Part shown: one piece after another, positions 597-58,471 of the stretch | Numbering within the stretch: the first letter of the stretch is position 1 | How the letters are laid out: each line of letters opens with the position of its first letter | DNA from: Portulaca oleracea | Lineage: Eukaryota; Streptophyta; Magnoliopsida; Caryophyllales; Portulacaceae | Direction: 5' to 3' | DNA: 64,000 nucleotides | Assembly (NCBI GenBank): GCA_029582165.1 | Contig: CM055890.1 | Span: 771,143-835,142 of the forward strand | Notes under the pieces: model-generated | Databases searched by the model: none | Told to the model about the DNA's origin: nothing | The model's input: only the letters and a program-made list of their open reading frames with translations | Made by a program: the position numbers and the translations under genes

Positions 597-1559
597 TGAT
601 GCATAATTGATGGCCTTATGCATCAAGGTCAACCATGGAGACATCTAATACTCACCTAGAAGGTAGAAGAGTTCAAGTCTCTCTTTTATCTCTCTACTTG
701 GAAGGGATCAACTCATGCGGACGTATACTTTTGCTCCTTAATTCAAGGACCGTGAAGCTATCATAGAAGTCATCCTAGAAGGGATTATTCTACATTCCAA
801 GAGCTTTCATATGGTTCAAGAATCTTTGAATTTGGATGAGAATCCAAGGAGTTATTCATATTTGTAATATAGTTTAGTATATTGTTTTCTTTATGATGTA
901 AGCATTAGGATGAATGATGTAAGCCCTTAAGGGGTCTTTTCTTGAAGCTAGGTGACGCCTAATGTGGTTGTAGCTAGAAATACCCCTCCTAGGTGCTTGT
1001 AATTCATTCAATTCATTCAAGTCATTCACATTGAATTTTTCAAACACATGATGCGTGCATTTGTTCTGCTAGGTGTTTTTTCGCTCTCTTTTGTGGGATT
1101 CAAATATCCCCTTCTTAGCTAAGGTTGGCATCCTTAGTGGTGAAAGGAAGGAATGGAGTATTCTTGAGGTGGTGAATCAGATCCTTCAAAGAATCTTCAA
1201 AAGCCATCAACTATCCATCTACCAATCGTCCATTATCATCCATTTTCGAGTGCTTCATCAAGAATTCAACAAGAATTCATCAAGCATTCATCAAGAAACG
1301 TGTGATCTTCATTCTACACGCCCAAGCACTTGTCATCATCAACGCTCATCATTTGACATTCGCCCATCCATTGTTCGCTCGCTCATCATTCATTTTGTTC
1401 ATTGTTTCCAATTGTTGGTAACTTTCTTTCATAGTCCTTTTCATCCATTTCTATGCCATTTTGGTTCTTTGGAACTTTGAGATAGAGGATTCTTATCTTC
1501 GCTTTAAAGATCCTTAGATTGTGTGTAATGAGATCATTCCTTGGTCCCATTATGCATCA
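597..1559 (+). repeat. A1 5' LTR (family A, 963 bp)
   Basis: It starts TGATGCATAA and ends ATTATGCATCA. The first 29 bases form an inverted repeat (TGATGCATAA, 9-base loop, TTATGCATCA). The promoter position reads TAGAAATA near 975-982 where the sister LTR (5882-6838) has TATAAATA, so this copy's TATA box is mutated. The last third is rich in CATCAAGAATTC-type repeats, which creates spurious Ser/His/Ile-rich reading frames. Confidence 0.92.
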
Positions 1560-1563
1560 AATT

Positions 1564-1573
1564 TGCATCGAGC
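1564..1573 (+). other. Degenerate primer-binding site of A1, first copy
   Basis: TGCATCGAGC follows the LTR end by four bases. It corresponds to TGGTATCAGAGC (complement of the initiator-Met tRNA 3' end) with small losses. The same kind of lesion occurs at 3576-3590 and in several B and C copies, so it may be a consensus error rather than a real mutation. Confidence 0.6.
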
Positions 1574-1855
1574 TAAGGAGTTTGAATCTCTTAGTTCTGA
1601 AACAATCTTTTACAATCTTTTCTCTCCAGCACGCTTCCCATCACAAAATTTCATTCATCTCTACATCACACGTCCTCGGATAGTTCTTCCAAGAACTCAT
1701 CAAGAACCCATCAAGAACTCATAAAGAAACCCCAAGCTCCACAAAGAACCCAAAACCAAACAAAAACCTACCCAATCTGTCCATACCACGTCCCATCCGT
1801 GCTAACCTTCCTTCCATGAGTTTCTTGTGATCTTTGTGAATCAAGATAGGTTCTA

Positions 1856-3168
1856 ATGGCAGTGCAAGTCTTCTACAAAGTCCTCTCCATCGTCCGGAAG
1901 ATGTTGAGAAGATGAAACAAAGAATCAAGTATCTCAACAAACAAGTAGCATACTACATGCGCTTCAAGAAAGGGAGAATCTTGAGGAAGTATCAAATCAT
2001 CAGAGAAGGAGAAGAGGACGTTGCAAGAAAGAGGCATGGACGTCCAAAGGAGGAAAGGTTCGCTTCAGTGGAGATCCCGAATTTGTTGGTGATCTTGATC
2101 CTAAGTTTATTTGGATTGGATACAAACCGTGAAAGGGTCTTTGATCTCAAAGATGTGGAAGATGATAAGAAGGTCAATGTTGTCTCTAAAGCTTCAAACA
2201 TAAACATTTGGTGGACAACTCTTGAAAGAAGCAAAGCAAGCAAAGGAAAGATAAGGCATGGGATAAGATGAAAAGAAAGCTCCAAGAAAGTTCCTACCAT
2301 CTAGCTACCACGTGACAACTACTACAAATTGCAAAGATTGGTCCAAGGAGGAAGAAGGAGGAGTACACAAAAGAATTTGAGCATCTACTTGGAGGTGCTG
2401 TGAAGGAGGATCGAGCCACAAACTTTGCACGTTATCTTTTTGTCTTAATGATGGGATTAGGCACGCTGTGGAATTACAACCATACAAAACTTTGATGAAT
2501 TGAGCTCCTTGTCCTTAAAGTTGAAAAACAAAGGAGAAATAAGGGAAAGAAGTCTCAAGCCAATACCAAACTCCACAAAAATGCCCACCCTACGTCCCAT
2601 CCAAACCTCCACCATCCACGAAACACATTCCCACAAAACTCCACAAAATCAGCCCCCATCCATCCCTAAACCTCACGACCAGTGACAAACCCATAGCATC
2701 AAGAAGGTGTTTTCGATGCCAAGGGTGGGACATTATGCTTCTGGAGTGTCCAAACAAGCGTGGTGTCTTTGGTGGAATACCAAAGTGCTTTATGTAGAGC
2801 TGAGTATGAGGAAGAAGAGGAAGGGTTGGTGCCAAAGAAGAGGAAGATGTAGAAGAGTATGTGGAAGGGCCAGATGAAGGAGAACTACTGTGGTAGAAAG
2901 GGCCTTGAATATCACAAATGTGCCAAAGGATCAACTACAAAGAGAAGCAATATTTCGCCTCGTTGTACCATCCAAGGGAGAGTATGCTCCTTGATCATAG
3001 ATGGAGGAAGTTGCACCAATGTCGCCTACAACAATGGTCAAGAAGTTGCAATGGAGATTAGCCCACATCCCACACCCTACACAATACAATGGCTAAGCCT
3101 CATGAGGCATCCGCAGATCAACGAGTTTCGTGAGTCTTTCAATTGGAAAGAATTATCAAGGAATCATT
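1856..3168 (+). pseudogene. A1 first Gag-protease copy, truncated at the inner LTR
   Basis: An ATG at 1856 opens a Gag matching the better copy at 58892. The coiled-coil-like KQRIKYLNKQVAYYM segment sits near 1915-1960, and a damaged Retrotrans_gag core follows (WW near 2210). The CCHC knuckle begins near 2708, an acidic linker covers 2800-2880, and the protease motif SLIIDGGSCTN lies at about 2988-3020. The copy stops just after the SLSIGKNYQ segment of the protease, where sequence switches to LTR. Many frame shifts are present. The protease motif residues themselves are intact, but the C-terminal part is missing. Confidence 0.8.
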
Positions 3169-3575
3169 CCTTCAAAGAATCTTCAAAAGCCATCAACTAT
3201 CCATCTACCAATCGCCCATTATCATCCATTTTCGAGTGCTTCATCAAGAATTCAACAAGAATTCATCAAGCATTCATCAAGAAACGTGCGATCTTCATTC
3301 TACACGTCCAAGCACTTGTTCGTTGTCACATCAACGCTCATCATTCGACATTCGTTCATCCATCGTTTGCTCGACATCTGGCCCATCCATCGCCTGCCTG
3401 CTCATCATTCATTTTGTTCATTGTTTCCAATTGTTTGGTAACTTTCTTCATAGTCCTTTCATCCATTTCTATGCCATTTTGGTTCTTCGAACTTTGAGAT
3501 AGAGGATTCTTATCTTCGCTTTAAAGATCCTTAGATTGTGTGTAATGAGATCATTCCTCGTCCCATTATGCATCA
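3169..3575 (+). repeat. Truncated family A LTR (3' 407 bp) inside A1
   Basis: From about 3169 (CCTTCAAAGAATCTTC) the sequence matches the last 400 bases of the outer A LTRs, ending in CATTATGCATCA at 3575 and followed by a normal leader. The first about 570 bases, with promoter, are absent. The join to the protease region shows a short GAATCA overlap, as in microhomology or template-switch junctions. Confidence 0.88.
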
Positions 3576-3868
3576 AATTTGCATCGAGCTAAGGAGTTGA
3601 ATCTCTTAGTTCTCAAACAATCTTACAATCTTTTCTCTCCTGCATACGCTTCCCATCACAAAATTTCATTCATCTCTACATCACACGTCCTTGATAGTTC
3701 TTCCAAGAACTCATCAAGAACCCATCAAGAACTCATAAAGAACCCCAAGCTCCACAAAGAACCCAAAACCAAACACAAACCTACCTAAACTCCCCATACC
3801 CACGTCCCATCCGTGCTAACCTTCCTTCCATGAGTTTCTTGTGATCTTTGTGAATCAAGATAGTTCTA

Positions 3869-5840
3869 ATGGCGTGCAAGCTCTCCTACAAAGTCCTCTC
3901 CATCGTCCCTGTAAGATGTTGAGAAGATGAAACAAAGAATCAAGTATCTCAACAAACAAGTAGCATACTACATGCGCCTTCAAGAAAGGGAGAATCTTGA
4001 GGAAGTATCAAGTAAATCATCAAGTGGAGAAGGAGAAGAGGACGTTGCAAGAAAGAGGCATGGACGTCCAAAGGAGGAAAGGTTCGGCTTCAAAGTGGAG
4101 ATCCCCGAATTTGTTGGTGATCTTGATCCGGAAGTTTATTTGGATTGGATACAAACCGTAGAAAGGGTCTTTGATCTCAAAGATGTGGAAGATGATAAGA
4201 AGGTCAAGTATGTTGCCCTAAAGCTTCGAAAACATGCAAGCATTTGGTGGACAAACTTGCAAAAGAAGCAGCAAGCAAAGGGGAAAGATAAGGTGCGTAC
4301 ATGGGATAAGATGAAAAGAAAGCTCCAAGAAAAGTTCCTACCATCTAGCTACCTACGTGACAACTACTACAAATTGCAAAGATTGGTCCAAGGAGGAAGA
4401 AGCGTGGAGGAGTACACAAAAGAATTTGAGCATCTACTTTGGAGGTGTGATCTAAAGGAGGACGAGCCACAAACTTCTGTACGTTATCTTTGGTCTTAAT
4501 GATGGGATTAGTGCACGCCAGGAATTACAACCATACAAAACTTTGGATGAATTGAGCTCCTTGTCCCTTAAAGTTGAAAAACAAAGGAGAAATAAGGGAA
4601 AGAAGTCTCAAGCCAATACCAAACTCCACAAAAATGCCCCACCCTACGCCCCATCCAAACCTCCACCATCCACGAAACACATTCCCACAAAAACTCCACA
4701 AAATCAGCCCCCATCCATCCCTAAACCTCACGATCTTGACCAAACCCATAGCATCAAGAAGGTGTTTTCGATGCCAAGGGTTGGGACATTATGCTTCTGA
4801 GTGTCCAAACAAGCGAGTGGTGTCTTGGTGGAATACCAAAGTGCTTTATATGTAGAGCCGAGTAAGGAAGAAGAGGAAGTCAGTTGGTGCCAAAGAAGAG
4901 GAAGATGTAGAAGAGTATGTGGAAGGGCCAGATGAAGGAGAACTACTTGTGGTAGAAAGGGCCTTGAATATCACAACGCCAAAGGATCAACTACAAAGAG
5001 AAGCAATATTTCGCTCCATTTCCGTACACTCATCCAAGGGAGAGTATGCCTCGATCATAGATGGAGGAAGTTGCACCAATGTCGCCTCTACAACAATGGT
5101 CAAGAAGTTGCAAATGGAGATTAGCCCACATCCCACACCCTACACAATACAACGGGCTAAGCTTGGGCGAGGCATCCGCAGATCAACGAGTTTCGTGAGT
5201 CTTTCAATTGGAAAGAATTATCAAGATTCATTATGGTGTGATATAGTTCCCATGGATACTTGTCATGTTTTGTTGGGAAGGCCATGGTTATATGATAGAC
5301 ATGTCATACATGATGGGAGGGCCAACACTTACACTCTCACCATCAACCAAAAGAGGATCACTTGGAACCTCTCGATCCACCATCTCAAGAAAAGGAGGAG
5401 AAACGCCATATTGTGTCAATCATGAAGGTGGAGAATCAAGGGCATGAAGAGTATAAGGAACCTATTCTTACACATTGGAGAAGAAAGAAACGGATCCAAG
5501 TATCCACCACCTTTGAATCTTCCTATGAAGCATATCTTCCATAAGCATCCAAGTACTATCTACTGACTTGGATCACTCAAGGCCAAGAATTCAAAGAAGG
5601 AAATAGCCCAAGTCATCAAGGTAAAGAAATAGCCTATTTCATTGTTTCATACTAAATGACAAGGGTAAAGTGGTAAGACTATGAGAAGCAACGTGAACAA
5701 TTTCACGCTCACGGTGGAGAAATACAAGTTCAAGTCTTATTACGGTGATCGAGGAAGAAAGTTTAAGAAGTTCATCAAAGGGATCTACGATGACTTCAAA
5801 GCTTTCAAGAAGAAAGTCTGTAAAGAAGGCAAGTAAGGGT
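3869..5840 (+). pseudogene. A1 second Gag-protease-C-terminal module copy
   Basis: The start ATG is at 3869. A clean stretch at 3927-4499 gives 190 residues with MKQRIKYLNKQVAYYM, then VEIPEFVGDLDPEVYLDW, HASIWWTNLQKK and KLQEKFLPSSYLRDNYYKL, all diagnostic of Retrotrans_gag. Frame shifts follow. The CCHC knuckle lies near 4764-4805, the acidic linker near 4850-4950, and the protease at 4919-5425 has IIDGGSCTNVAS and, about 70 residues on, MDTCHVLLGRPW. The C-terminal module (IKGIYDDFKAFKKKV-like) is at about 5740-5825. No polymerase domains occur before the polypurine tract. Close relative of the copy at 58892-60875. Confidence 0.82.
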
Positions 5841-5867
5841 TGGTTTTCCAAGTTTGAGGACAAACTT

Positions 5868-5881
5868 TTCAACCTGGTGTA
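5868..5881 (+). other. Polypurine-tract region before A1 3' LTR
   Basis: TTTTCAACCTGGTGTA abuts the LTR start. In other copies the same place reads CAACCGGGGGTGTA, so the purine run is shortened here. This is where plus-strand DNA synthesis would be primed. Confidence 0.6.
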
Positions 5882-6838
5882 TGATGCATAATTGATGGCC
5901 TTATGCATCAAGGTCAACCATGGAGACATCTAATACTCACCTGAAGGTAGAAGAGTTCAAGTCTCTCTTTATCTCTACTGAAGGGATCAACTCATGCGAC
6001 GTATACTTTGCTCCTTAATTCAAGGACCGTGAAGCTATCATAGAAGTCATCCTAGAAGGGATTATTCTACATTCCAAGAGCTTCATATGGTTCAAGAATC
6101 TTTGAATTGGATGAGAATCCAAGGAGTTATTCATATTTGTAATATAGTTTAGTATATTGTTTTCTTTATGATGTAAGCATTAGGATGAATGATAAGCCCT
6201 TAAGGGTCTTTTCTTGAAGCTAGTGACGCCTAAGGGTGGGTTGTAGCTATAAATACCTCCTAGGTGCTTGTAATTCATTCAATTCATTCAAGTCATTCAC
6301 ATTGAATTTTCAAACACACGATGTGTTCTCTAGCATTTGTGCTAGGTGTTTTTCGTCTCTTGTGGGATTCGAAATATCCCCTTCTTCTAGCTAAGGTTGG
6401 CATCCTTAGTGGTGAAAGGAAGGAATTGGAGTATTCTTGGAGGTGGTGAATCTGTATCCTTCAAAGAATCTTCAAAAGCCATCAACTATCCATCTACCAA
6501 TCGTCCATTATCATCCATTTTCGAGTGCTTCATCAAGAATTCAACAAGAATTCATCAAACATTCATCAAGAAACGTGTGATCTTCATTCTACACGTCCAA
6601 GCACTTGTTCGTCATCAACGTTCATCATTTGACATTCGTCCATCCATTGTTCGTTCGTTCATCATTCATTTTGTTCATTGTTTCCAATTGTTTGGTAACT
6701 TTCTTTCATAGTCCTTTTCATCAATTTCTATGCCATTTTTGGTTCTTTGGAACTTTGAGATAGAGAATTCTTATCTTCGCTTTTAAAGATCCTTAGATTG
6801 TGTGTAATGAGATCATTCCTTGGTCCCATTATGCATCA
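5882..6838 (+). repeat. A1 3' LTR (family A, 957 bp)
   Basis: It has the same ends as the 5' LTR, with intact TATAAATA near 6247-6254. It is followed by the ATCGA duplication and then the resumed family B leader. Confidence 0.93.
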
Positions 6839-6843
6839 ATCGA
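6839..6843. repeat. Target site duplication ATCGA, right copy, of A1
   Basis: Matches 592-596. On the minus strand it spans codons 2-3 (Val-Asp) of the family B Gag, whose ATG is at 6845-6847. Confidence 0.93.
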
Positions 6844-7107
6844 CCATCTTGATCAATCTTGGTGCAAAAAGATTGCAAGATTCATGGTTTAGGGGTTTTG
6901 GATGGGTAAAGGACGAGCGAGTATTGTGTTTGGGGCGGATTGTGTTTGGGCTATGGGTTCTTTGGGGAGTTTATGGTTCTTTATGAGTTCTTTATGAGTT
7001 CTTGGAAGAACTCATGGGTGGCGTGATGATGGGGGAATGGTGGGGATGGATTTGTGATGGAAAGATGGTGAAAGATGGATCAAGAACTAAGAGAATCAAT
7101 CTCCTAA
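6844..7107 (-). other. B1 gag start codon and 5' leader
   Basis: The minus-strand leader of B1 runs from the primer-binding site to the ATG at 6847-6845. It is purine/pyrimidine biased and contains runs of AAGAACTCAT-type repeats and a perfect palindrome at 6994-7015. No upstream coding sequence is evident. The same leader occurs in units B3 to B6. Confidence 0.75.
6994..7015. promoter_or_regulatory. Palindromic leader hairpin (10-bp stem)
   Basis: ATGAGTTCTT-GG-AAGAACTCAT is a perfect inverted repeat with a two-base loop, about 100 bases downstream of the primer-binding site in transcript orientation. Shorter versions occur in the leaders of families A, C and E. A role in RNA dimerisation or packaging is only an inference. 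Confidence 0.55.
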
Positions 7108-7119
7108 GCTCTGATACCA
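7108..7119 (-). other. Primer-binding site of B1 (initiator-Met tRNA)
   Basis: On the minus strand the sequence reads TGGTATCAGAGC four bases inside the LTR end at 7124. This is the complement of the 3' end of plant initiator-Met tRNA. Confidence 0.88.
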
Positions 7120-7123
7120 ATTT

Positions 7124-8110
7124 TGATGTATAATAATACCAAGGATGATCAAATTATACAAAGGCTAAGGATCTTTAAAAAACCAAGATAAGAATCTTGC
7201 TTCTCAAAGTTCTTAAAGGATCCAAAATGGAATGAAAAGGTATGTAGATAAACGAAAAGATGATGGAGTTTGTTTACCAAGAATGAAGATCAATTGATGT
7301 GTTGATGAATTATGGGTGAATGGCGAATCAAGGAGGGAACGATTGATGAATGATGATGAACGATGACTTCTTGAACGCTTGTTGACGAATATAGAGTGGA
7401 CGAATGGTTCTCGATAGGTTGAATGTTGATTGATGCTTGAAAGATCAATCAAAGATGGATTAACGCTGAATGAACGAATTGGATGAATGAATGATAGATT
7501 TGGCTCTGAAGATTCTGGAGGATACAGCCACACCACCTTCAAGAATGCTTCAATCTCTTCCTATCACCACTTAGGATGCCACCCTAAGCTAGAAGAAGAT
7601 GATAGACTCGAATCTCCCTCAAGAGAAACGAAATACTAGCAAAAGCTAGAGAGATAACAACACCTTGTGTTCAGATTTGGTTTATTGAATGAATGAATTA
7701 CAAGGCACCCTAAGGGGTCTATTTATACTACTCAAGCCCCCTTAGGCGCCTACAAATCAAGAAATGGCCCTTGAGGCTTACATCATCCTACACATTTATT
7801 ACATCATAAAACTCTAAAATACAACTCTAGAAAGAAAAGACTATAACTCTTTCAATACTTCTGTTTTCCAAGATTCAAAACCATTGGAAAGCTCTTTCAA
7901 TGCTCTTCAATATGTCTTTGATGACTTCCTCATTAGACGTATATATCTAGAGTTATAGAGTAAATTACCAAAACTCTTGTCAAATCATTCAAACGAAAGG
8001 GATACTTGAGTGAATGATGCTCTTTTCCATATAACCGAGTATTAAGCTCCTATGATGTATATTGAATGTCTTTGATGTCCTTGATGTATATGGCCATCAA
8101 ATATACATCA
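7124..8110 (-). repeat. Family B LTR B1 (987 bp)
   Basis: On the minus strand it begins TGATGTATAT and ends TTATACATCA. The first 29 bases form an inverted repeat TGATGTATAT / ATATACATCA around TTGATGGCC. A TATA box is at 7727-7720. It is shared between two neighbouring units. Confidence 0.92.
7720..7727 (-). promoter_or_regulatory. TATA box of family B LTR
   Basis: TATAAATA on the minus strand, followed by AGACCCCTTAGGG. It lies near the middle of the LTR, where the U3/R boundary is expected, and is conserved in the other B LTRs (for example near 13601-13612 and 20085-20095). Confidence 0.7.
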
Positions 8111-8128
8111 TACTCCCTTGAAAAAAGT
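8111..8128 (-). other. Polypurine-tract region of unit B2
   Basis: On the minus strand a purine-rich TTTTTTCAAGGGAGTA immediately precedes the LTR start at 8110. Plus-strand primer site by position. Confidence 0.6.
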
Positions 8129-8159
8129 TTGTCCTCAAACTTTGAACATCAAATCTTAC

Positions 8160-9831: not shown

Positions 9832-10752
9832 AAGTTCTTAAAGGATCCAAAATGTAATGAAAAGGTATGTAGATAAACGAAAAGATGATGGAGTTCGTTT
9901 ACCAAGAATGAAGATCAATTGATGTGTTGATGAATTATGGGTGAATGGCGAATTGAAGGAGGGAACGATTGATGAATGATGATGAACGATGACTTCTTGA
10001 ACGTTTGTTCGACGAATATGGAGTGGACTAATGGTTCTTGATAGGTTGAATGTGTATTGATGCTTGAAAGATCTATCAAAGATGGATGAACGCTTGAATG
10101 AACGAATTGGATGAATGAATGATAGATTTGGCTCTTGAAGATTCTTGGAGGATACAGCCACACCACCTTCAAGAATGCTTCAATCTCTTCCTATCACCAC
10201 TTAGGATGCCACCCTAAGCTAGAAGAAGATGATAGACTCGAATCTCCCTCAAGAGAAACGAAATACTAGCAAAAGCTAGAGAGAAAACAACACCTGTGTT
10301 TCAGATTTGGTTTATTGAATGAATGAATTACAAGGCACCCTAAGGGGTCTATTTATACTACTCAAGCCCCCCCTTAGGCGTGTACAAATCAAGAAAATGG
10401 CCCCTTGAGGGTTACATCATCCTACACATTTATTACATCATAAAACTCTAAAATACAACTCTAGAAAGAAAAGACTATAACTCCTTCAATACTTGTCCGT
10501 TTTCCAAGATTCAAAAACCATTGGAAAGCTCTTTCAATGCTCTTCAATATGTCTTTGGATGACTTCCTCATTAGACGTATATATCTACAGTTATAGAGTA
10601 AATTACCAAAATGCCCTTGTTGAAATCATTCAAACGAAAGGGATACTTGAGTGAATGATGCTCTTTTGCCATATAACCGAGTATTAAGCTCCTATGATGT
10701 ATATTGAATGTCTTTGATGTCCTTGATGTATATGGCCATCAAATATACATCA
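9832..10752 (-). repeat. Family B LTR B2, truncated at its U5 end
   Basis: It matches other B LTRs from AAGTTCTTAAAGGATCC onward to ATATACATCA at 10752. The outer about 62 bases (U5 end) and adjacent leader are absent; sequence runs straight into mid-gag (ATTACCATTAAA). A TTAAA/AAAGTT overlap at the join fits a microhomology deletion. Confidence 0.88.
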
Positions 10753-10799
10753 TACTCCCCATTGAAAAAGTTTGTCCTCAAACTTTGAACATCAACTCA

Positions 10800-13012: not shown

Positions 13013-13016
13013 ACTT

Positions 13017-19485: not shown

Positions 19486-20487
19486 TGATGTATAATGAGA
19501 CCAAGGATGATCAAATTATACAAAGGCTAAGGATCTTTAAAAAACCAAGATAAGAATCTTGCTTCTCAAAGTTCTTAAAGGATCCAAAATGGAATGAAAA
19601 GGTATGAAGATAAACGAAAAGATTATGGAGTTCGTTTACCAAGAATGAAGATCAATTGATGTGTTGATGAATTATGGGTGAATGGCGAATTGAAGGAGGG
19701 AACGATTGATGAATGATGATGAACGATGACTTCTTGAACGTTTGTTGGACGAATACGGATGGACGAATGGTTCTCGATAGGTTCAATGTTGATCGATGCT
19801 TGAAAGATCAATCAAAGATGGATGAACGCTGAATGAACGAATTGGATGAATGAATGATAGATTTGGCTCCTGAAGATTCTTGGAGGATACAGCCACACCA
19901 CCTTCAAGAATGCTTCAATCTCTTCCTATCACCACTTAGGATGCCACCCTAAGCTAGAAGAAGATGATAGACTCGAATCTCCCTCAAGAGAAACGAAATA
20001 CTAGCAAAAGCTAGAGAGATAACAACACCTTGTGTTTGTATTTGGTTTATTGAATGAATGAATTACAAGGCACCCTAAGGGGTCTATTTATACTACTCAA
20101 GCCCCCCCTTAGGCGTGTACAAATCAAGAAAATGGCCCCTTGAGGCTTACATCATCCTACACATTTATTACATCATAAAACTCTAAAATACAACTCTAGA
20201 AAGAAAAGACTATAACTCCTTCAATACTTGTCCGTTTTCCAAGATTCAAAAACCATTGGAAAGCTCTTTCAATGCTCTTCAATATGTCTTTGGATTACTT
20301 CCTCATTAGACGTATATATCTACAGTTATAGAGTAAATTACCAAAATGCCCTTGTTGAAATCATTCAAACGAAAGGGATACTTGAGTGAATGATGCTCTT
20401 TTGCCATATAACCGAGTATTAAGCTCCTATGATGTATATTGAATGTCTTTGATGTCCTTGATGTATATGGCCATCAAATATACATCA
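19486..20487 (-). repeat. Family B LTR B5 (1002 bp)
   Basis: Complete shared LTR. The primer-binding site of unit B5 (TGGTATCAGAGC on the minus strand, about 19470-19481) is intact here, unlike those of B3 and B4. Confidence 0.92.
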
Positions 20488-25116: not shown

Positions 25117-26056
25117 TGATTCATACTTGATGGTCTTATGCATCAAGGTCAACCATGGAGACATCTAATACTCACCTAGAAGGAAGAAGAGCTCAAGTCT
25201 CTCATATATCTCTACTTGGAAGGGATCAACTCATATGGTCGTATACTTTTGCTCCTTAATTCAAGGACCGTGAAGCTATCATAGAAGTCATCCTAGAAGG
25301 GATTATTCTACATTCCAAGAGCTTTCATATGGTTCAAGAATCTTTAAGTTTGGATGAGAATCCAAGGAGTTATCATCATTTGAAATCTAGTTTAGTTCAT
25401 TGTTTTCTTTATGATGTAATCATTAGAATAGATGATGTAAGCCTCAAGGGCCTATTTCTTGATTTGTGCACGTTTAGGAGGGCTAGGATTACTATAAATA
25501 CCCCCTTAGGCCTCTTGTAATCTCATTCATTCAATATATCAAATACAAAGTAAACACATGGTGTTGTTTTCTCTCTAGCTTTTGTGCTAGTTTTCGCTTT
25601 CTCGAGGGAGTTTGAAGTTATCCCCTTCTTCTATTCAAGGGTGGCATCCTTGAAGGTGAAAGGAAGGAATCAAGGTCTCTTGAAGGTGGTGTGGCTATAT
25701 CCTTCCAAGAGTCTTCAAAAGCCATCATCTATCCATCGTTCATTCATCCATTTATCATCCATTTCGTGTTATTCATCAAGAATTCAACAAGAATTCGTCA
25801 AGCATTCAACAAGAAGCATTTGTCCTTCATCAAACACGCCCAAGCTTCATTCGCTCGTCATTCATCATTCGTTTGTCCATTTGTTCATTATTTCCATCCA
25901 ATTGTAATCATCTTTCATAGTTCTTTCCATCCTTTTTCATCCATTTCTATTCCATTTTTGTTCTTTGGAACTTTGAGAAAGGAGATTCCTATCTTCGCTT
26001 TTAAAGATCCTTAGATATTGTGTAGTGAGATCAACCCTTGGTCCCATTATGCATCA
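25117..26056 (+). repeat. Family C LTR C1 (940 bp)
   Basis: Ends in CATTATGCATCA. Its start is altered to TGATTCATACTTG instead of TGATGCATAATTG, which breaks the terminal inverted repeat. TATA box at 25493-25500. Shared by units C1 and C2. Confidence 0.92.
25493..25500 (+). promoter_or_regulatory. TATA box of family C LTR
   Basis: TATAAATA followed by a C run and TTAGGC, then TTGTAATCTCATTC. It is conserved in C1 to C8 and absent from the H1 LTR. The likely transcription start is a few tens of bases downstream. Confidence 0.75.
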
Positions 26057-27840: not shown

Positions 27841-27881
27841 TTTTCCAAGTTTGAGGACAAACTTTTTCAACCGGGGGTGTA

Positions 27882-28826
27882 TGATGCATAATTGATGGCC
27901 TTATGCATCAAGGTCAACCATGGAGACATCTAATACTCACCTAGAAGGAAGAAGAGCTCAAGTCTCTCTTATAGATCTCTACTTGGAAGGGATCAACTCA
28001 TATGGTCGTATACTTTCGCTCCTTAATTCAAGGACCGTGAAGCTATCATAGAAGTCATCCTAGAAGGATTATTCTACATTCCAAGAGCTTTCATGGTTCA
28101 AGAATCTTTAAGTTTGGATGAGAATCCAAGGAGTTATCATCATTTGAAATCTAGTTTAGTTCATTGTTTTCTTTATGATGTAATCATTAGAATAGATGAT
28201 GTAAGCCTCAAGGGCCTATTTCTTGATTTGTGCACGTTTAGGAGGGCTAGGATTACTATAAATACCCCCCTTAGGCCTCTTGTAATCTCATTCATTCAAT
28301 AAATCAAATACAAAGTAAACACATGGTGATGTTTTCTCTATAGCTTTTTTGCTAGTTTTCGTTTCTCTTTAGGTAGTTTCGAAGTTATCCCCTTCTTCTA
28401 ATCAAGGGTGGCATACTTGAAGGTGAAAGGAAGGAATCAAGGTCTCTTGAAGGTGGTGTGGCTATATCCTTCCAAGAGTCTTCAAAAGCCATCATCTATC
28501 CATCGTTCATTCATCCATTTATCATCCATTTCGTGTTATTCATCAAGAATTCAACAAGAATTCGTCAAGCATTCAACAAGAAGCATTTGTCCTTCATCAA
28601 ACACGCCCAAGCTTCATTCGCTCGTCATTCATCATTCGTTTGTCCATTTGTTCATTATTTCCATCCAATTGGTAATCATCTTTCATAGTTCTTTCCATCC
28701 TTTTTTCATCCATTTCTATTACATTTATGGTTCTTTGGAACTTTGAGAAAGGAGATTCCTATCTTCGTTTTTAAAGATCCTTAGATATTGTGTAGTGAGA
28801 TCAACCCTTGGTCCCATTATGCATCA
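27882..28826 (+). repeat. Family C LTR C2 (945 bp)
   Basis: Complete with intact terminal hairpin (loop TTGATGGCC). A few differences from its neighbours cluster at 28315-28415. Shared by C2 and C3. Confidence 0.92.
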
Positions 28827-29151
28827 AATTTGGTATCAGAGCTAAGGAGTTTGAATCTCTTAGTTCTTGAAACAATCTTTTTACAATCTTTCCCTCTCCC
28901 ACACGTTCCACATCAAACGCCCATCACAAACTTTCATTCCCATCATCTCTCCATCACACGCCACCCATAAGTTCTTCCAAGAACTCATCAAGAACCCATC
29001 AAGAACTCATCAAGAACTCATAAAGAATCATAAACTCCACAAAGAACCCGTGAGCCCAAACACAAATCCAACCAATTCCCCCTCACGTCCCATCTATGCT
29101 AACCATCCTACCATGAGTTTCTTGTGATCTTTTGAATCAAGATAGGTTCTA

Positions 29152-48073: not shown

Positions 48074-49039
48074 TGATGCATAATTGATGGCCTTATGCAT
48101 CAAGGTCAACCATGGAGACATCTAATACTCACCTAGAAGGTAGAAGAGTTCAAGTCTCTCTTTTATCTCTACTGAAGGATCAACTCATGCGGACGTATAC
48201 TTTTGCTCCTTAATTCAAGGACCGTGAAGCTATCATAGAAGTCATCCTAGAAGGGATTATTCTACATTCCAAGAGCTTTCATATGGTTCAAGAATCTTTG
48301 AATTTGGATGAGAATCCAAGGAGTTATTCATATTTGTAATATAGTTTAGTATATTGTTTTCTTTATGATGTAAGCATTAGGATGAATGATGTAAGCCCTT
48401 AAGGGTCTTTTCTTGAAGCTAGGTGACGCCTAAGGTGGGTTGTAGCTATAAATACCCTCCTAGGTGCTTGTAATTCATTCAATTCATTCAAGTCATTCAC
48501 ATTGAATTTTTCAAACACATGATGTGTTCTCTCTAGCATTTGTGCTAGGTGTTTTCGCTCTCTTTGTGGGATTCAAATATCCCCTTCTTCTAGCTAAGGT
48601 TGGCATCCTTAGTGGTGAAAGGAAGGAATTGAGTATTCTTGGAGGTGGTGAATCAGATCCTTCAAAGAATCTTCAAAAGCCATCAACTATCCATCTACCA
48701 ATCGTCCATTATCATCCATTTTCGAGTGCTTCATCAAGAATTCAACAAGAATTCATCAAGCATTCATCAAGAAACGTGTGATCTTCATTCTACACGTCCA
48801 AGCACTTATTCGTCATCAACGTTCATCATTTGACATTCGTCCATCCATTGTTCGTTCGTTCATCATTCATTTTGTTCATTGTTTCCAATTGTTTGGTAAC
48901 TTTCTTTCATAGTTCTTTTCATCCATTTCTATGCCATTTTTGGTTCTTTGGAACTTTGAGATAGAGGATTCTTATCTTCGCTTTTAAAGATCCTTAGATA
49001 TTGTGTAATGAGATCATCCCTTGGTCTCATTATGCATCA
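48074..49039 (+). repeat. Solo family A LTR (966 bp)
   Basis: Complete A LTR with hairpin start and CATTATGCATCA end, no internal region, flanked by TCATG on both sides. TATAAATA at 48447-48454. It formed by recombination between the two LTRs of a full A element. The same insertion site is occupied by a fuller A element in unit D2. Confidence 0.93.
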
Positions 49040-49587: not shown

Positions 49588-50547
49588 TGATGCATAATTG
49601 ATGGCCTTATGCATCAAGGAGACATTCCATACTCACCTAGAAGAAAGAAGAGCTCAAGTCTCACATATTCAACTCATGTGATCGAATACTTTTGCTCCTT
49701 AATTCAAGGACCATGAAGCTACTAAGAAAGACGTCCAAAGGTGGATTAATCTACATTCCAAGAGCTTTCATATGGTTCAAGAATCTTTAGATTTGGTTGA
49801 GAATCAAAGGAGTTATCAATATTTGTAATATAGTTTAGTTCATTGTTTTCTGTATGATGTAATCATTAGAGTAGATGATGTAAGCCCTAAGTGGCCCATT
49901 TCTTGTTTTGTACACGCCATAAGGAGGGCTCAGAATCGTAAATACCCCTTAGGGTGCCTTGTAATTCAATTCATATTAGAAATACAATCAAACACTTGTG
50001 TTTTCTCTAGCTTTTGTGCTAGTCTTTTCGCTTTCTCTTGAGGAGTTTCAAGTTATCCCCTTCTTCTATTCAAGGGTGGCATCCTTGATGGTGAAAGGAA
50101 GGAATTGAAGAGTTCTTTGAGGTGGTGTGCTGTATCCTCATCGATCCTTCAAAAGCCAAATCTATCCAACTATCCATTCCCTTCGTTCATTCAACTACAT
50201 TCATCCAACCTCACGTCATTCATCAAGAATTGTTCATCCATCCAACGATTCTTCATCCGTTCATCAAGAATACAACAAGAATTCATCAAGCACCCAACAA
50301 GAAGCATTCGTTCTTCTTCAACACGCCCAAGCTTCAACAAACGTGCATCCATTCAAACGCTTCATTCGTTCATTATCATTCATCATTCGTTCATTTCTTT
50401 CTTTGGTAAACGATTTCACTATCTTTCGTTTATCATTCATCCTTTTTCCATTCATTCTTTTGGACTAAGAGTTGGGATTCTTATCTCGTTCTTAAAGATC
50501 CTGGATTCTTGTGTAATGTGATCATCCCTTGGTTTCATTATACATCA
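49588..50547 (+). repeat. Family D LTR D1 (960 bp)
   Basis: Starts TGATGCATAATTG (hairpin intact) and ends TTATACATCA. At the promoter position it reads GTAAATACCCC rather than TATAAATA. Shared by units D1 and D2. Close to C in the body, but with its own U3. Confidence 0.9.
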
Positions 50548-52018: not shown

Positions 52019-52883
52019 TGATGCATAATTGATGGCCTTATGCATCAAGGTCAACCATGGAGACATCTAATACTCACCTAGAAGGTAGAAGAGTTCAAGT
52101 CTCTATTATCTCTACTTGGAAGGGATCAACTCATGCGGACGTAAACTTTTGCTCCTTAAATCAAGGACCGTGAAGCTATCATAGAAGTCATCCTAGAAGG
52201 GATTATTCTACATTCCAAGAGCTTTCATATGGTTCAAGAATCTTTGAATTTGGATGAGAATCCAAGGAGTTATTCATATTTGTAATATAGTTTAGTATAT
52301 TGTTTTCTTTATGATGTAAGCATTAGGATGAATGATGTAAGCCCTTAAGGGTCTTTTCTTGAAGCTAGGTGACGCCTAAGGTGGGTTGTAGCTATAAATA
52401 CCCTCCTAGGTGCTTGTAATTCATTCAATTCATTCAAGTCATTCATTGAATTTTTCAAACACATGATGTGTTCTCTAGCATTTGTGCTAGGTGTTTTCGC
52501 TCTCTTTGTGGGATTGAAATATCCCTTCTTCTAGCTAAGGTTGGCATCCTTAGTGGTGAAAGGAAGGAATTGGAGTATTCTTGAGGTGGTGAATCAGATC
52601 CTTCAAAGAATCTTCAAAAGCCATCAACTATCCATCTACCAATCGTCCATTATCATCCATTTTCGAGTGCTTCATCAAGAATTCAACAAGAATTCATCAA
52701 GCATTCATCAAGAAACGTGTGATCTTCATTCTACACGTCCAAGCACTTATTCGTCATCAACGTTCATCATTTGACATTCGTCCATCCATTGTTCGTTCGT
52801 TCATCATTCATTTTGTTCATTGTTTCCAATTGTTTGGTAACTTTCTTTCATAGTTCTTTTCATCCATTTCTATGCCATTTTTG
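52019..52883 (+). repeat. A2 5' LTR, first part (865 bp)
   Basis: Hairpin start, TATAAATA at 52393-52400, cut at CCATTTTTG by element E. It resumes at 58472. Confidence 0.9.
52879..52883. repeat. Target site duplication TTTTG, left copy, of element E
   Basis: TTTTG before the E 5' LTR and again at 58472-58476 after its 3' LTR. Confidence 0.92.
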
Positions 52884-53942
52884 TGATGCATAATAGCCTA
52901 GCTATATACATCAAGGTTAGCTAAGAGGACTTTGATCTAGCTTCAAGTTACAAAAACATCAACGACATCATCAATTACAATGGTTTATTAAGCTCTATAC
53001 ATCAAGGAAGCAAGCATGAAGGACCTTGATGTTATTCTAGCTTACATGGAGTTACTCTCATATATGGAAGTCATCAATGAGCTCAAAATACTCTCGGCAA
53101 TAAGAGTCCTTATTGAATTCAGAATGGAGGACCTTATCAAGTACAGTTCGATATTTTGCTCTATAACTCTAGATCCATACATCTATTGAGGAAATCATCA
53201 AAAGACAGATTGGAGCTCTTTCAATAAGCTTTCCAATGGTTTTGAATCAATGAAAACGGACAAGTATTGAAGGAGTTATAGCAATTTCTTTCTAGAGTTG
53301 TATTTTAGAGTTTATGATGTCATAAATAGGATATATGATGTAATAGTTGATTCTTGGTTTCTTGAACCCTAGGTACACGTCCAAGGGGTCCCTAAAGTAG
53401 TATAAATAGACCCTAGGTGCCATTGTATTCATTCAATTCAAGTCATTCAATAAATCAAATACAAACACAAGGTGTTGTTTTCTCTCTAGTTTTGAGCTAG
53501 AGTTTTCGCTTTCTCTTGAGGAGAACGAGTATCCCCTTCTTCTATTCAAGGGTGGCATCCTTGAAGGTGAAAGGAAGGAATTGAAGAGTTCTTTGAGGTG
53601 GTGTGGCTGTATCCTCATCGATCCTTCAAAAGCCAATCTATCCAACTATCCATTCCATCTGGCCATTCACTACATTCATCCATCCAAACAACATTCATCA
53701 AGAATTCATCAAGAATTCATCAAGAATTCAACAAGAATTCATCAAGAACCCAAAGCATTCAAACCGTCCATCATTCGTTCATCATCATACCTTCATTTGG
53801 TAATCATCTTTCATAGTTCTTTCTATCCATTTCCATTCCATTTTCGCACCTTAAGAACTTTGAGAAGGGAGATTCTTATCTTCGTTTTTAAAGATCCTTA
53901 ATCCTTTTGTGTAATGTGATCTTTTGGTCCCATTATGCATCA
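52884..53942 (+). repeat. Family E 5' LTR (1059 bp)
   Basis: Starts TGATGCATAATAGC and ends CATTATGCATCA. The first 30 bases form an imperfect hairpin with GCTATATACATCA. TATAAATA at 53401-53408. Five copies of a 12-base ATTCATCAAGA-type repeat at about 53690-53755. Confidence 0.93.
53401..53408 (+). promoter_or_regulatory. TATA box of family E LTR
   Basis: TATAAATA followed by GACCC, as in family B. Confidence 0.72.
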
Positions 53943-53946
53943 AAAT

Positions 53947-53958
53947 TGGTATCAGAGC
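53947..53958 (+). other. Primer-binding site of element E
   Basis: Intact TGGTATCAGAGC four bases after the LTR. Confidence 0.9.
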
Positions 53959-54216
53959 TTAGGAGATTGATTCTCTTAGTTCTTGATCCACCTTTTTACC
54001 ATCTTTCCATCACAAACCCATCCCCACCATTCCCCATCATCACGCCACCAATAAGTTCTCCCAAGAACTCATAAAGAACTCATAAAGAACCATAAACTCC
54101 ACAAAGAACCCATAGCCCAAACACAATCCGCCCCAAATACAAATCTCTCGTCCTTTACCCATCCAAAGCCCCTAAACCATGAATCTTGCAATCTTTTTGC
54201 ACCAAGATTGATCAAG

Positions 54217-55358
54217 ATGGACGATTCTAGCAAGAATTCCCAACGTGAGCTACAATGCTTGAAGCAACAAATTGATGATCTTGCCAAGCAATGGAAGAAT
54301 GTGGAATTCTTCCAAAGGGATCAAGAAGCGCAAAATCACGTGTGGTTCACTCTTCTAATGATGAATATGAAGCTCCTACGAATGGAGCACACGTTTGAAT
54401 AAGAAGAAGGGATATCATGTCCAAGAAGAATTTTCGCCAATCAAAAGAGACCACATCATCAAACTTGCAAGAATGAAGCAAGGGAGCATGGACGTGGTTC
54501 CATACACGATACAATCTTAATGCAACTATGGAAGTATGCTCTTGAGGAGGATGACCCCAAGTCTTGGTATGTTACTTAAGTGGTCTTAATGATTACATTG
54601 GAGATATTGTTGTATGTCAATTTTATTTAAACTTGGAAGAGTTAAGTTCTTTGGCTTTTAATGTTGAGATGGAGGCAAAGATGAAAGAAACTTGGGGTGA
54701 GAACCATCTACAACTAAAACCAAACATACCAACCACAAAACCCCACGCCAAGAACATCCCAAAACAACCCCAAATCAATCCCAAACCTCACGTCGAAAGA
54801 CCTACAAAACAGCCCCTACAACATCCTATCCATAGCTCCACAAAACAAGCCTTAGACCTCTCTATACCTACTGCCCAAAACTCCTCAAATCAGCCCAAAA
54901 ACCATCCCACTCCTATTGTCCAAGAAAAGGAAATCATTGTTCCAAGTACATGTCTACATTGCCAAAGTTTTGATCATATTGAAAGTGCATGTCCTAAGGA
55001 GAAAGAAGTATCTTTGGTTGATTGTCAAACATCATTAAGCATGCAACCAGAAATTGAAAGTGTGGTATTTGATGTATTTGACGAGCATGAGGATGTTCAT
55101 AAACTTGGCATAAATGAGGTATGTAGCGTGCCTCATGAAGTACACGAGGAAGAAAAAGAAGAGGATATTGTACTAGAAACGATGTATGTAGAAGAATTAA
55201 GTGGAGAAGAGTTGCTTGTTGTAAGTAGAGTCTTGAAAGAGACTAGTGTATCAAATGATCTACAACAAAGAGAGCCTATTTCTTACTCTCAAATATACCA
55301 TTCAAAAAGAAGTATGTCCATTGAATCAAGAGAGAGAAGATTGTACTTCCCATTGTAG
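54217..55358 (+). pseudogene. Element E Gag with intact CCHC knuckle
   Basis: ATG at 54217: MDDSSKNSQRELQC, LKQQIDDLAKQ. After damage at about 54400-54560, the frame 54564-55358 is open for 264 residues: LNDYIGDIVVCQFYLNLEEL, a long Lys/Pro/Asn/His-rich linker (about residues 40-125), knuckle CLHCQSFDHIESAC at 54951-54992 with all four ligands, VSLVDCQTSLS, and an acidic region rich in Glu, Asp and Val. It ends where the protease-like region shifts frame. It lacks the WW core, like C and D. Confidence 0.8.
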
Positions 55359-55593
55359 TATTGACGAGGGCATTGATCTTGACATTGACGTTTCTACAAA
55401 GAGGATCAAAATGAAGGATTTGGAGAGCTATTCACTTCCTACTCTACACGTTTATGACGACAACATACACCTTGATCCAAGAAGTTTAGTAAGTCTTTGT
55501 TTTTACAAGATTTGCAAAGATTCATTATATTGTAATATTACTTCTATGGATTTTTGTTATACTTTGTTTGGAAAATCAAAGTTGTATGATTGA
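55359..55593 (+). pseudogene. Element E degenerate protease-like region
   Basis: The open frame from 55246 covers CPLNQEREDCTSHCS at the active-site position (no Asp-Ser/Gly-Gly motif), then a loosely conserved segment, DPRSLVSLCFYKICKDSLYC and SMDFCYTLFGKSKLYD, followed by a stop. The order and spacing match the distal half of the family A protease, so this is a decayed retropepsin. Confidence 0.72.
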
Positions 55594-55662
55594 GTATCAT
55601 GCTCCAAGAGACGTCCTTATTACCCTCTTGTAACTCATGGCCCACGGAGGATCAGCATTCTT

Positions 55663-56106
55663 ATGACACTTATGGAGAATAAGTATCATGAATTTGAAGA
55701 ACCAAGGAGTCTAATTCTTACACCAATGGAGGTTGGAAACCGTAAGCGTATAAAGGATCAAGATCCTATGCCATCACTTGTTCTCATTTGTGAATATTTG
55801 GATGAAAGACAAGCACCATCGACAAGTGACTTCTCTCACTTATCTCTTTGGGATCAAGCTCAATTCGTGCATAACTACATCAACGGTTTTGATTCTCATA
55901 GTATGCAACATATTTTGAAAGAGTATGTACCATTACAATGTAAAAAGATTGTATTTGTATACTTTGGTAACATTTTTGTATGTAGTAGAAGTAGAAAGGA
56001 GTATGTAAATCCTTTGGAGTTAGTCTTGATCATGACAAAGCACGAGGAGCCACAAGGAGAATTGGAGAAGTACTTGGAGAATTGTCCTTACCTCGTCCAA
56101 GAATGA
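55663..56106 (+). pseudogene. Element E reverse transcriptase remnant, catalytic motif YFGN
   Basis: 147 codons. Near residues 80-120 the line MQHILKEYV, KKIVFVYFGNIFVCSRSRKE, NPLELVL resembles the Ty3/gypsy reverse transcriptase palm (pattern M..vL......FvvvYfDDIliySks..eh..hL..Vl). The two catalytic aspartates of YFDD are Gly (codon 55966-55968) and Asn (55969-55971). Upstream fingers and palm motifs are not recognisable. Family assignment rests on this one motif and on its position between protease and RNase H remnants. No polymerase activity is possible. Confidence 0.7.
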
Positions 56107-56268
56107 GCTAACTCAACATATCTCATCAAATGGAGTAATTCAAGTGGACAAAAGGAAGAAAGGAAATATTCAAGAAGGATCCATACTTGCATCTATACTG
56201 AGGTACTATGTCTCTTAAAGGATGCTAAAGATCATCATATTCTTTTATTTCCTATTCTCGCATCATAT

Positions 56269-56859
56269 TTGTTCATTACAAATGGAGTTGAGAAAGGTGA
56301 AGTCCTATCTCAAGGAAGTTGTCCCATGGATTATTTTGGTGATATACTAATTGGAGAAAAGGAGAAGCTTCATGCTTATGGCTTTACATTCATACTTGTT
56401 GTTATCATGAGGATATTTGAGCAAAAGGATTGTTATCATAGAGGATTCATCCTTAAGCTTTGTAATTCTTACAAAGTATTGGAGTATGCTTCATATGATA
56501 AGGAGATCAAGCCATCGTTATACTTTGAGATGAAGTACTTGATTTGTTCATCAAAATCAAGTCACTTGGAGGAAGCAAGTCCTTTGACTAAAGGAAGTTT
56601 TCTAACGAGGAGATACATGTTTGATTCAAAATTACTCGAGCTTGGATATATCAAGGAGTTATATGAAGATGATGATGATTTTAAAGAAGTATTCAAGGTA
56701 TGTGAGAAGCATCATCAACAACCCTTTCATATTACTCATGGATTTCTTTTCAAAGGGAATCAATTGTGTATTCCAAGGAGTGGAATTCGTGACTTCTTAA
56801 TCATGGAAGTACATGGAAGTTCTTTTGATCATTTGGGTCTTCAATACATTACAAGATGA
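56269..56859 (+). pseudogene. Element E RNase H remnant and integrase zinc-binding domain, 5' part
   Basis: 196 codons. Residues 1-25 (ITNGVEKGEVLSQGSCPMDY) parallel the RNase H segment DASGVGIGAVLSQ.G.PIAY, with its Asp lost. Around residue 70, LEYASYDKEI parallels YPTYDKEL. Residues about 112-150 (TRRYMFDSKLLELGYIKELY) parallel the RNase H to integrase connector. Residues 160-196, FHITHGFLFKGNQLCIPRSG then IMEVHG....HLG, parallel the start of the Ty3 integrase, with both His ligands of the HHCC finger. A frame shift follows. Confidence 0.75.
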
Positions 56860-57286
56860 AGGAGTATTATTTACGCCAAGCATGATCGTTGACATTGAGC
56901 AAACGTTACAATGTTGTGATATTTGCAATCCTTCTATACTATATGGAGATGAAAGCTTGAATTCTAAGGTTGAAGTACCATGGATTCAAGGAAGTCTTAC
57001 TATTGTCTTCATCATGAGTTACGAGCTTATGAATCTATACTTTGAAGTTGAGAAGTTATATGAGGTTTCTACATTCTCTATGAAGAAACAAGATTTGAAG
57101 TTCCATAATGTCATTGGATTAGTTATGAGAAAATTTGGAAGAAAGTGGAAGTTCAAGTCAAGCATCAAAGGAATCTATGATGATTTCAAAGCGTTTAAGA
57201 AGAGAGTTTGTAGTCTCTTCAAGAAGCAAGTTGACGGAACAACACATATGGAAAGACATCTTACAAAGAAGGAAGAAGGGCTTTGA
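56813..57286 (+). pseudogene. Element E integrase finger end and C-terminal module
   Basis: The frame contains DEGVLFTPSMIVDIEQTLQ and CCDICNPS (about 56905-56931), the CxxC half of the integrase HHCC finger. The integrase catalytic core (DDE) is absent: the sequence goes within about 60 residues to the shared C-terminal module (STFSMKKQDLKFHNVIGLVM, FKSSIKGIYDDFKAFKKRVC). Thus the module lies at the 3' end of what was a pol gene. Confidence 0.72.
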
Positions 57287-57412
57287 AGAAGAAGTTTATA
57301 TATGATCACTTGAGTACGAATCAAAGAAGTTTTGTGATTAAAGTTATATGGTGTTTTTCTTTAAAGAAAGTCTTGTCTAAAGTTTGAGGCAAACTTTTTC
57401 AATCGGAGAGAA

Positions 57413-58471
57413 TGATGCATAATAGCCTAGCTATATACATCAAGGTTAGCTAAGAGGACTTTGATCTAGCTTCAAGTTACAAAAACATCAACGACATCAT
57501 CAATTACAATGGTTTATTAAGCTCTATACATCAAGGAAGCAAGCATGAAGGACCTTGATGTTATTCTAGCTACATGGAGTTACTCTCATATATGGAAGTC
57601 ATCAATGAGCTCAAAATACTCCGGCAATAAGAGTCCTTATTGAATTCGGCAATGGAGGACCTTATCAAGTACTTCGATATTTTGCTCTATAACTCTAGAT
57701 CCATACATCTATTGAGGAAATCATCAAAAGACAGATTGGAGCTCTTTCAATAAGCTTTCCAATGGTTTTTGAATCAATGAAAACGGACAAGTATTGAAGG
57801 AGTTATAGCAATTTCTTTCTAGAGTTGTATTTTAGAGTTTATGATGTCATAAATAGGATATATGATGTAATAGTTGATTCTTGGTTTCTTGAACTCTAGG
57901 TACACGTCCAAGGGGTCCCTAAAGTAGTATAAATAGACCCCCTAGGGTGCCATTGTATTCATTCAATTCAAGTCATTCAATAAATCAAATACAAACACAA
58001 GGTGTTGTTTTCTCTCTAGTTTTGAGCTAGAGTTTTCGCTTTCTCTTGAGGAGAACGAGTATCCCCTTCTTCTATTCAAGGGTGGCATCCTTGAAGGTGA
58101 AAGGAAGGAATTGAAGAGTTCTTTGAGGTGGTGTGGCTGTATCCTCATCGATCCTTCAAAAGCCAATCTATCCAACTATCCATTCCATCGGTCATTCACT
58201 ACATTCATCCATCCAAACAACATTCATCAAGAATTCATCAAGAATTCATCAAGAATTCAACAAGAATTCATCAAGAACCCAAAGCATTCAAACCGTCCAT
58301 CATTCGTTCATCATCATACCTTCATTTGGTAATCATCTTTCATAGTTCTTTCTATCCATTTCCATTCCATTTTCGCACCTTAAGAACTTTGAGAAGGGAG
58401 ATTCTTATCTTCGTTTTTAAAGATCCTTAATCCTTTTGTGTAATGTGATCTTTTGGTCCCATTATGCATCA
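57413..58471 (+). repeat. Family E 3' LTR (1059 bp)
   Basis: Same length as the 5' LTR, with only scattered small differences; several of them are short indels of the recurrent kind seen through the window. Confidence 0.93.

What the first reader, a model, noticed from the sequence alone, without database searches (positions are those of the whole stretch)
597..625. Hairpin at the very start of the LTR, kept by compensatory changes between families
Families A, C and D begin TGATGCATAA + 9-base loop + TTATGCATCA. Family B begins TGATGTATAT + the same loop + ATATACATCA: both stem positions 6 and 10 changed together with their partners. Family E has an imperfect 13-pair version. The arm also copies the LTR terminus (TTATGCATCA), so each LTR has an inverted second copy of its integrase-recognised end about 20 bases inside. 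Possible roles: paired integrase binding, protection of cDNA ends, or a transcriptional operator.
Basis: partly seen in the sequence, partly recalled or inferred. Interest (0 to 1): 0.8.

Follow-up and report, generated by a model that had tools for sequence, protein, structure and literature searches.

The report
Terminal hairpin in plant retrotransposon LTRs
Several families of centromere-type plant retrotransposons carry, at the first base of each long terminal repeat, an inverted repeat able to fold into a hairpin whose two arms changed together between families; this points to selection for base pairing at a replication-critical boundary, although some families in the same genome lack it.

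Summary
The hairpin at 597-625 is real: 20 of the 24 LTR starts tabulated in the window have a perfect 10-bp stem flush with the LTR terminus. In the window's own 1.13-Gb genome the A-type hairpin occurs at 3660 sites (reversed-pattern control 0). Other families keep a stem with other letters: pair 6 is T:A, C:G or G:C; pair 8 T:A, G:C or C:G; pair 9 A:T, T:A or G:C; loops differ in sequence and length. Pairing at positions 6-9 in 16 chosen types beats 100,000 permutations of arms (52 of 64, mean 36.3, none as high; not corrected for phylogeny). The U5 end does not follow these changes and shows no stem of its own, so 'second integrase site' is not the general rule. Against strict need: the window's family E has two broken pairs yet 704 copies with that exact start; most listed H-type copies have one mismatch; several families with the same polypurine-tract context have no such stem. 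Most likely a structure at the PPT/U3 boundary acting during reverse transcription (mechanism inferred). New variant of a known kind.

The parts
597..625 (+). terminal hairpin of family A 5' LTR: arm 597-606, loop 607-615, inner arm 616-625
597..1559 (+). family A 5' LTR (963 bp), ends TTATGCATCA (1550-1559)
597..6838 (+). element with two A LTRs, duplication ATCGA at 592-596 and 6839-6843
5882..5910 (+). hairpin, family A 3' LTR
48074..48102 (+). hairpin, family A solo LTR 48074-49039, duplication TCATG
52019..52047 (+). hairpin, family A LTR interrupted by the E element
20459..20487 (-). family B hairpin TGATGTATAT-TTGATGGCC-ATATACATCA; also 8082-8110, 10724-10752, 13970-13998, 17207-17235 (all minus)
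20430..20439 (-). third copy of ATATACATCA in family B, LTR position 49-58; the 5' arm is predicted to pair with it instead
27882..27910 (+). family C hairpin; also at 30667, 33451, 36228, 39078, 40976, 43753 (+), 40058-40086 and 46074-46102 (-)
25117..25145 (+). family C hairpin with two one-sided changes (TGATTCATAC)
49588..49616 (+). family D hairpin (also 62611-62639 minus); the D LTR 49588-50547 ends TTATACATCA
52884..52913 (+). family E hairpin, C.A mismatch at pair 6, bulge at 10; also 57413-57442
52884..58471 (+). complete E insertion inside an A LTR, duplication TTTTG
27848..27863 (+). pre-PPT stem AGTTTG-AGGA-CAAACT, nearly the same in all families fetched
27873..27881 (+). polypurine tract GGGGGTGTA abutting the LTR start at 27882
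28822..28842 (+). LTR 3' end plus primer-binding site CATCAAATTTGGTATCAGAGC

Best explanation
In the families that have it, the first 19-31 nt of U3 form a stem-loop whose base is exactly the PPT/U3 junction. What is kept is complementarity and position, not letters: stems run from 6 to about 13 bp and the loop is free in letters and length. It lies on the U3 side only, directly behind a conserved pre-PPT stem and the polypurine tract. The most likely place of action is the genomic RNA or minus-strand cDNA during reverse transcription: a fold starting at U3 base 1 would part RNA from cDNA exactly where RNase H must leave the PPT primer end, giving an exact LTR terminus for integrase. Shown: conservation, covariation, U3-side location, use of the outer end in insertions. 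Inferred: that the fold forms in vivo, and the step it serves.
For: Paired changes at pairs 6, 8, 9 and 10 between families. Permutation test on 16 types. On a 16-row alignment 93.1% of cells pair, 11 cells are changed on both sides against a shuffle mean of 3.1, 0 of 500 shuffles reach the covariation score, and slid structures are far lower. Whole length 19, 27, 29, 30 or 31 nt and unrelated loops, which argues for a fold rather than fixed half-sites. The 7 U5 types tested have no such stem and do not track it. In RNA folding of 120-nt 3' LTR contexts mean pair probability is 0.41-0.99 in 10 of 13. It sits flush with the PPT/U3 junction behind AGTTTGAGGRCAAACT (exact in 12 of 14 loci L201-L214). 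A shrunken element with 284-bp LTRs, whose flanks read CCGCG on both sides, keeps it (read).
Against: Of 40 context sites fetched, 17 have less than 5 flush pairs: 7 have no stem to speak of (L217, L220, L225, L229, L234, L253, L254), 6 only TGAT-N4-ATCA, 3 a 5-bp stem starting at base 2, and 1 a long stem without its first pair. Family E has pairs 6 and 10 broken and 704 copies with that exact start, 60 of the first 100 listed lying in C2:35.24-35.81 Mb. Of 37 H-type rows among the 100 listed, 23 have a G.A mismatch at pair 8, 13 have pair 6 or 9 broken and 1 is fully paired; of 34 M-type rows 21 have the full 9-bp arm (counted by eye). In the B context the stem probability is 0.00 because the third copy takes over; it is 0.24 in one E copy and 0.40 in M. 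The number of pairs with double changes is no higher than in shuffles (169 of 500, 162 of 500). In 71-nt contexts the fold of A and E is no more stable than shuffles as RNA (z -0.19 and -0.39). No test corrects for shared descent; no structure probing exists here.
Confidence: 0.42

Rival explanations
1. Mutational symmetry without function: template switching inside the imperfect inverted repeat, mainly during reverse transcription, copies one arm onto the other and keeps the arms alike.
For: Would change several pairs at once, as between A and B, and needs no universal use; families without the stem, or with a broken one, do well.
Against: Among the first 100 of 4823 arms-free copies the 6 imperfect ones are all one-sided; no new paired change was listed. 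E keeps its mismatches over 704 copies. It does not explain why the repeat starts at base 1 of U3, and at U3 only.
Confidence: 0.23
2. Integrase site: two head-to-head copies of the recognised end, the inner one binding extra integrase subunits.
For: Inner arm equals the U5 terminus in A and C. TGATG/CATCA is the printed CRM terminal repeat (PMC3059260, passages). Subterminal inverted sites exist in DNA transposons such as P and Mu (recalled).
Against: Inner arm follows U3 and not U5 in B, D, E', G, M; spacing is not fixed; the U5 types tested have no inner copy; no window element ended at an inner copy.
Confidence: 0.13
3. Dyad binding site of a host transcription factor, an operator at the start of U3.
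For: U3 usually holds the regulatory sequence of an LTR (recalled); B has a third exact copy of the arm and E a copy with one mismatch.
Against: Half-sites change at positions 6, 8, 9, 10 and spacer length varies; an operator need not start at base 1.
Confidence: 0.12
4. Chance plus shared descent: one accidental inverted repeat inherited by the families.
For: The A/B/E split could be one event (midpoint-rooted tree); copy numbers are inflated by tandem arrays; the arm of M was chosen from two CATCA in that LTR.
Against: Different paired states in F, G, L227 and M; the first 30 columns are conserved while LTRs are 61-80% identical.
Confidence: 0.08

Closest known systems
CRM clade of plant chromoviruses (Neumann et al. 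2011, PMC3059260; passages read)
   Same: TGATG...CATCA LTR ends, 5-bp target duplication, tRNA-Met type primer-binding site, PPT before the 3' LTR, LTRs of about 1 kb
   Different: the passages seen describe a 5-bp terminal repeat and a conserved PPT in group A, and no stem inside U3; 'palindrom' has 0 hits in the main text, 'hairpin' was not searched there
SIRE and HIV PPT stem-loops as cited in Benachenhou et al. 2013 (PMC3601003; passages read)
   Same: inverted repeats at the 5' end of U3, next to the PPT
   Different: there, by that paper, U3 pairs with sequence upstream of the PPT and the PPT lies in the loop; here U3 pairs with itself, starting at base 1
U3/U5 att sites of plant Del elements (Cruz et al. 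2014, PMC4029996; passages read)
   Same: conserved first 10 bp of the LTR; U3 and U5 sites evolve separately
   Different: 'inverted', 'hairpin' and 'stem' have 0 hits in the main text; no inner copy in the passages seen

Membership tests
CRM clade | LTR ends TGATG/CATCA | tested here: met
   families A-E in the window
CRM clade | 5-bp target site duplication | tested here: met
   19 insertions found
CRM clade | primer-binding site for tRNA-Met | tested here: inconclusive
   CATCA-N3-TTGGTATCAGAGC 10 times in the window, chance 0; the match to tRNA-Met is recalled, not tested against a tRNA
CRM clade | reverse transcriptase places it in CRM | not tested
   no RT domain among 10 window ORFs scanned with Pfam at E 0.01
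CRM clade | Ty3-type gag | tested here: met
   PF03732 at 1.4e-15 and 5.2e-16; 83 homologues; general to many plant Ty3 elements
CRM clade | integrase C-terminus (CR motif, none, or type II chromodomain) | not tested
   no integrase domain among the 10 ORFs scanned
SIRE-type PPT stem-loop | U3 repeat pairs with sequence upstream of the PPT | tested here: not met
   the complementary partner lies inside U3
duplicated integrase site | inner copy matches the U5 end as well as the U3 end | tested here: not met
   met in A and C only; not in B, D, E, E', G, M

The most novel reading that the evidence does not exclude
A sequence-free hairpin that starts at the first base of U3, together with a nearly constant stem just upstream of the polypurine tract, brackets the plus-strand primer on both sides and fixes the exact LTR terminus; lineages change its letters as long as the arms mostly pair, and some have shortened or lost it.
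Probability: 0.25. Interest if true: 0.8.

Novelty: new variant of a known kind. Interest (0 to 1): 0.5.

Why it matters
How LTR retrotransposons set an exact plus-strand start and exact DNA ends is known in detail for few elements (recalled). A terminal stem that covaries between families, lies on the U3 side and abuts the PPT is a clear candidate cis-element that short-oligonucleotide assays can test, and families without it in the same genome are natural controls. It also offers a way to delimit LTRs of this lineage that does not depend on fixed letters.

Tried and rejected
Comparison DNA from public collections: viral contigs and genome contigs (25 hits, in records titled as bacteria or archaea; by my own estimate about 30 are expected by chance) gave no plant element that I recognised; of the loci none was examined further, L121 was compared with the window and had no match. 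So no other plant species was compared, and whether other plant clades have the hairpin stays open.

Literature: 8 full-text searches were answered. Among the titles and abstract starts listed I saw none that describes a stem inside U3 of CRM elements; the lists were capped. PMC6911290 (passages) is on target-site palindromes, not LTR ends. One search for the pre-PPT letters gave 26 papers, 20 listed, none on retrotransposons by title. Most subscription papers are not held.

Rejected: the inner arm as a U5 copy (see above); tandem arrays caused by the hairpin (an array also occurs in a family without it, L225, C1:15855339-15866516); fold stability alone as evidence.

Bias to know: require inner CATCA and so pick hairpin families; only the positions between are free. 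Lists are capped at 100 rows, lowest contigs first. Besides the H- and M-type rows, one search listed about 17 rows that are chance or other repeats and were left out of the family table. The 16 types were chosen by me and include subfamilies; H' is represented by one listed copy; reduced sets of seven are given for that reason. The 40 sites were chosen from the 100 listed to cover each context type, with repeats of some; not a random sample. L151-L170 were chosen for perfect hairpins. In one search, 41 of 51 LTR starts in fetched loci had 7 or more flush pairs against 11 of 1020 other TGATG sites, but those loci were selected by hairpin, so I do not lean on it. The PBS search in the own genome did not complete and was dropped; so was a count for family G.

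Full report
What is there. The window is a nest of Ty3-type elements with LTRs of about 940-1060 bp that start TGATG and end CATCA, several followed by TTGGTATCAGAGC, with gag of PF03732. These are marks of the CRM clade as printed in PMC3059260 (passages); RT phylogeny was not tested. The window is C23:771143-835142 of a 1.13-Gb assembly of 63 contigs.

The hairpin. At 597-625 the first 10 bases of the LTR are the exact complement of bases 20-29. Of the 24 LTR starts tabulated, 20 have a perfect 10-bp stem. One LTR each of families A-E is 61-80% identical in pairs, while 21 of the first 30 alignment columns are invariant in all five and 26 in A-D.

Genome-wide counts. The A-type hairpin with free loop has 3660 sites, control 0. 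The A/B-type loop with the inner five positions of each arm free has 4823 copies, control 0; of the first 100 listed, 75 are CATAA/TTATG, 19 TATAT/ATATA and 6 imperfect, all one-sided; no mixed state of pairs 6 and 10 is among them. The E-type loop has 3037 copies, control 0; of the first 100, 68 are fully paired, 24 are the window's E state with pairs 6 and 10 broken, 5 are TATAA intermediates, 2 have ATATC and 1 TACAT. The window's exact E start has 704 copies; of the first 100 listed, 60 lie in C2:35.24-35.81 Mb and 21 in C3:31.96-32.37 Mb.

More families. Searching behind the PPT for a loop without G at position 13 (107 hits, control 0) gave F TGATGCAT-N11-ATGCATCA and G TGATGTAC-N14-GTACATCA; 82 of the 100 listed have the inner five pairs intact. 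Searching for a base other than T at position 8 (1013 hits, control 5) gave more G, and H, I, J, K and M types. H is TGATGTAGATTTG..CAAATATACATCA: of 37 H-type rows listed, 23 have a G.A at pair 8, 13 have pair 8 G:C but another pair broken, and one (H', C4:22413500) is fully paired over ten. M is TGATGGAGG-T-CCTCCATCA: 21 of 34 M-type rows have the full arm. J and K have an internal loop. Fourteen of these sites were read: each LTR starts right behind the PPT, with AGTTTGAGGRCAAACT upstream, exact in 12 and one base off in 2. In L227 the stem is TGATGTATTT/AAATACATCA.

Tests. Over 16 chosen types, pairs 6-9 are Watson-Crick in 52 of 64 cells; permuting inner arms gives 36.3 on average and never 52 in 100,000. 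With ten types pairs 6-8 give 24 of 30 (85 of 100,000 as high); with seven, 18 or 19 of 21 (473 and 77 of 100,000). On a 14-row alignment (13 distinct) 92.3% of cells pair and the covariation score exceeds all 500 shuffles; on a 16-row alignment 93.1%, same result. In both, the number of pairs with double changes (169 and 162 of 500 shuffles as high) and of pair types (493 and 378) is not above shuffles; only four of ten pairs vary at all. None of this corrects for shared descent. The LTR tree (hairpin left out, midpoint root) puts B and E on one side and A, C, D on the other, so the A/B change may be one event with two compensated pairs; F, G, L227 and M add other states.

What it follows. 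U5 ends read TTATGCATCA (A, C, E, most E', F, L206, L207), TTATACATCA (B, D, L190, L191, L205, L208), TCATACATCA (G) and GCATACATCA (M, one copy). The inner arm follows the U3 terminus instead. Seven U5 types tested as starts of a stem show none beyond chance (P 0.185-0.44). Nineteen insertions (4 in the window, 15 in fetched loci) have an exact 5-bp duplication outside the outer end (the script looked for outer ends only); among window LTRs none ended at the inner copy.

Where it is missing. A context search with no condition on the LTR beyond TGATG found 9154 sites, control 3. Of 40 sites fetched (chosen, not random), 17 have 6 or more flush pairs, 6 have 5, and 17 fewer: 1 a long stem without its first pair, 3 a 5-bp stem from base 2, 6 TGAT-N4-ATCA, 7 none. 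Over 15 clusters, taking the first member of each, 5 are below P 0.05 and the combined P is 8e-6 (three clusters are A, Ew/E' and H types added or known beforehand). The feature is common, not universal.

Mechanism. Pairing is kept while letters, loop and spacing change; it lies on the U3 side and its base is the PPT/U3 junction. That fits a folded nucleic acid at the step that makes this junction better than a DNA site for a dimer or for integrase. In RNA folding of 13 contexts of 120 nt the stem has mean pair probability 0.41 or more in 10, 0.40 in M, 0.24 in one E copy and 0 in B, where the third copy of the arm takes its place; the pre-PPT stem ranges from 0.00 to 0.99. Template switching is the main rival. 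I put selection on pairing at about 0.7 and the PPT-boundary role at 0.42.

Noticed in passing
27848-27863, 60884-60899 and families fetched: AGTTTG-AGGR-CAAACT, a 6-bp stem with a 4-nt loop some 10-25 nt upstream of the LTR start, is nearly constant across families whose LTRs differ widely (69 of 105 contexts exact, where some contexts are not LTRs; 12 of 14 in L201-L214).
   Followed up: partly
60909-60946: A plus-oriented PPT is followed directly by an LTR in reverse orientation (the 3' end of the minus-strand A LTR 60918-61897): a precise LTR flip, perhaps by recombination between the 10-bp inverted ends.
   Followed up: no
22744-44690 and 6838-22729: Tandem arrays of LTR plus internal region with one shared LTR per unit (about 2.78 kb family C, 3.24 kb family B); evenly spaced runs elsewhere: 2.18 kb at C1:23.480 Mb, 2.23 kb at C1:15.855 Mb, 2.38 kb at C1:34.207 Mb.
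   Followed up: no
G000 C2:35.24-35.81 Mb, C3:31.96-32.37 Mb: Dense clusters of E-type LTR starts (60 and 21 of the first 100 listed), possibly centromere cores built of this family.
   Followed up: no
L180, L181 (G000 C1:23276469-23279238): An element with LTRs of only 284 bp, flanked by CCGCG on both sides, that keeps the terminal hairpin, PPT and primer-binding site.
   Followed up: partly
40031-40086: A C LTR end abuts an inverted 55-bp piece of an LTR start; no LTR start behind the same 5-bp flank was found in the window list.
   Followed up: no
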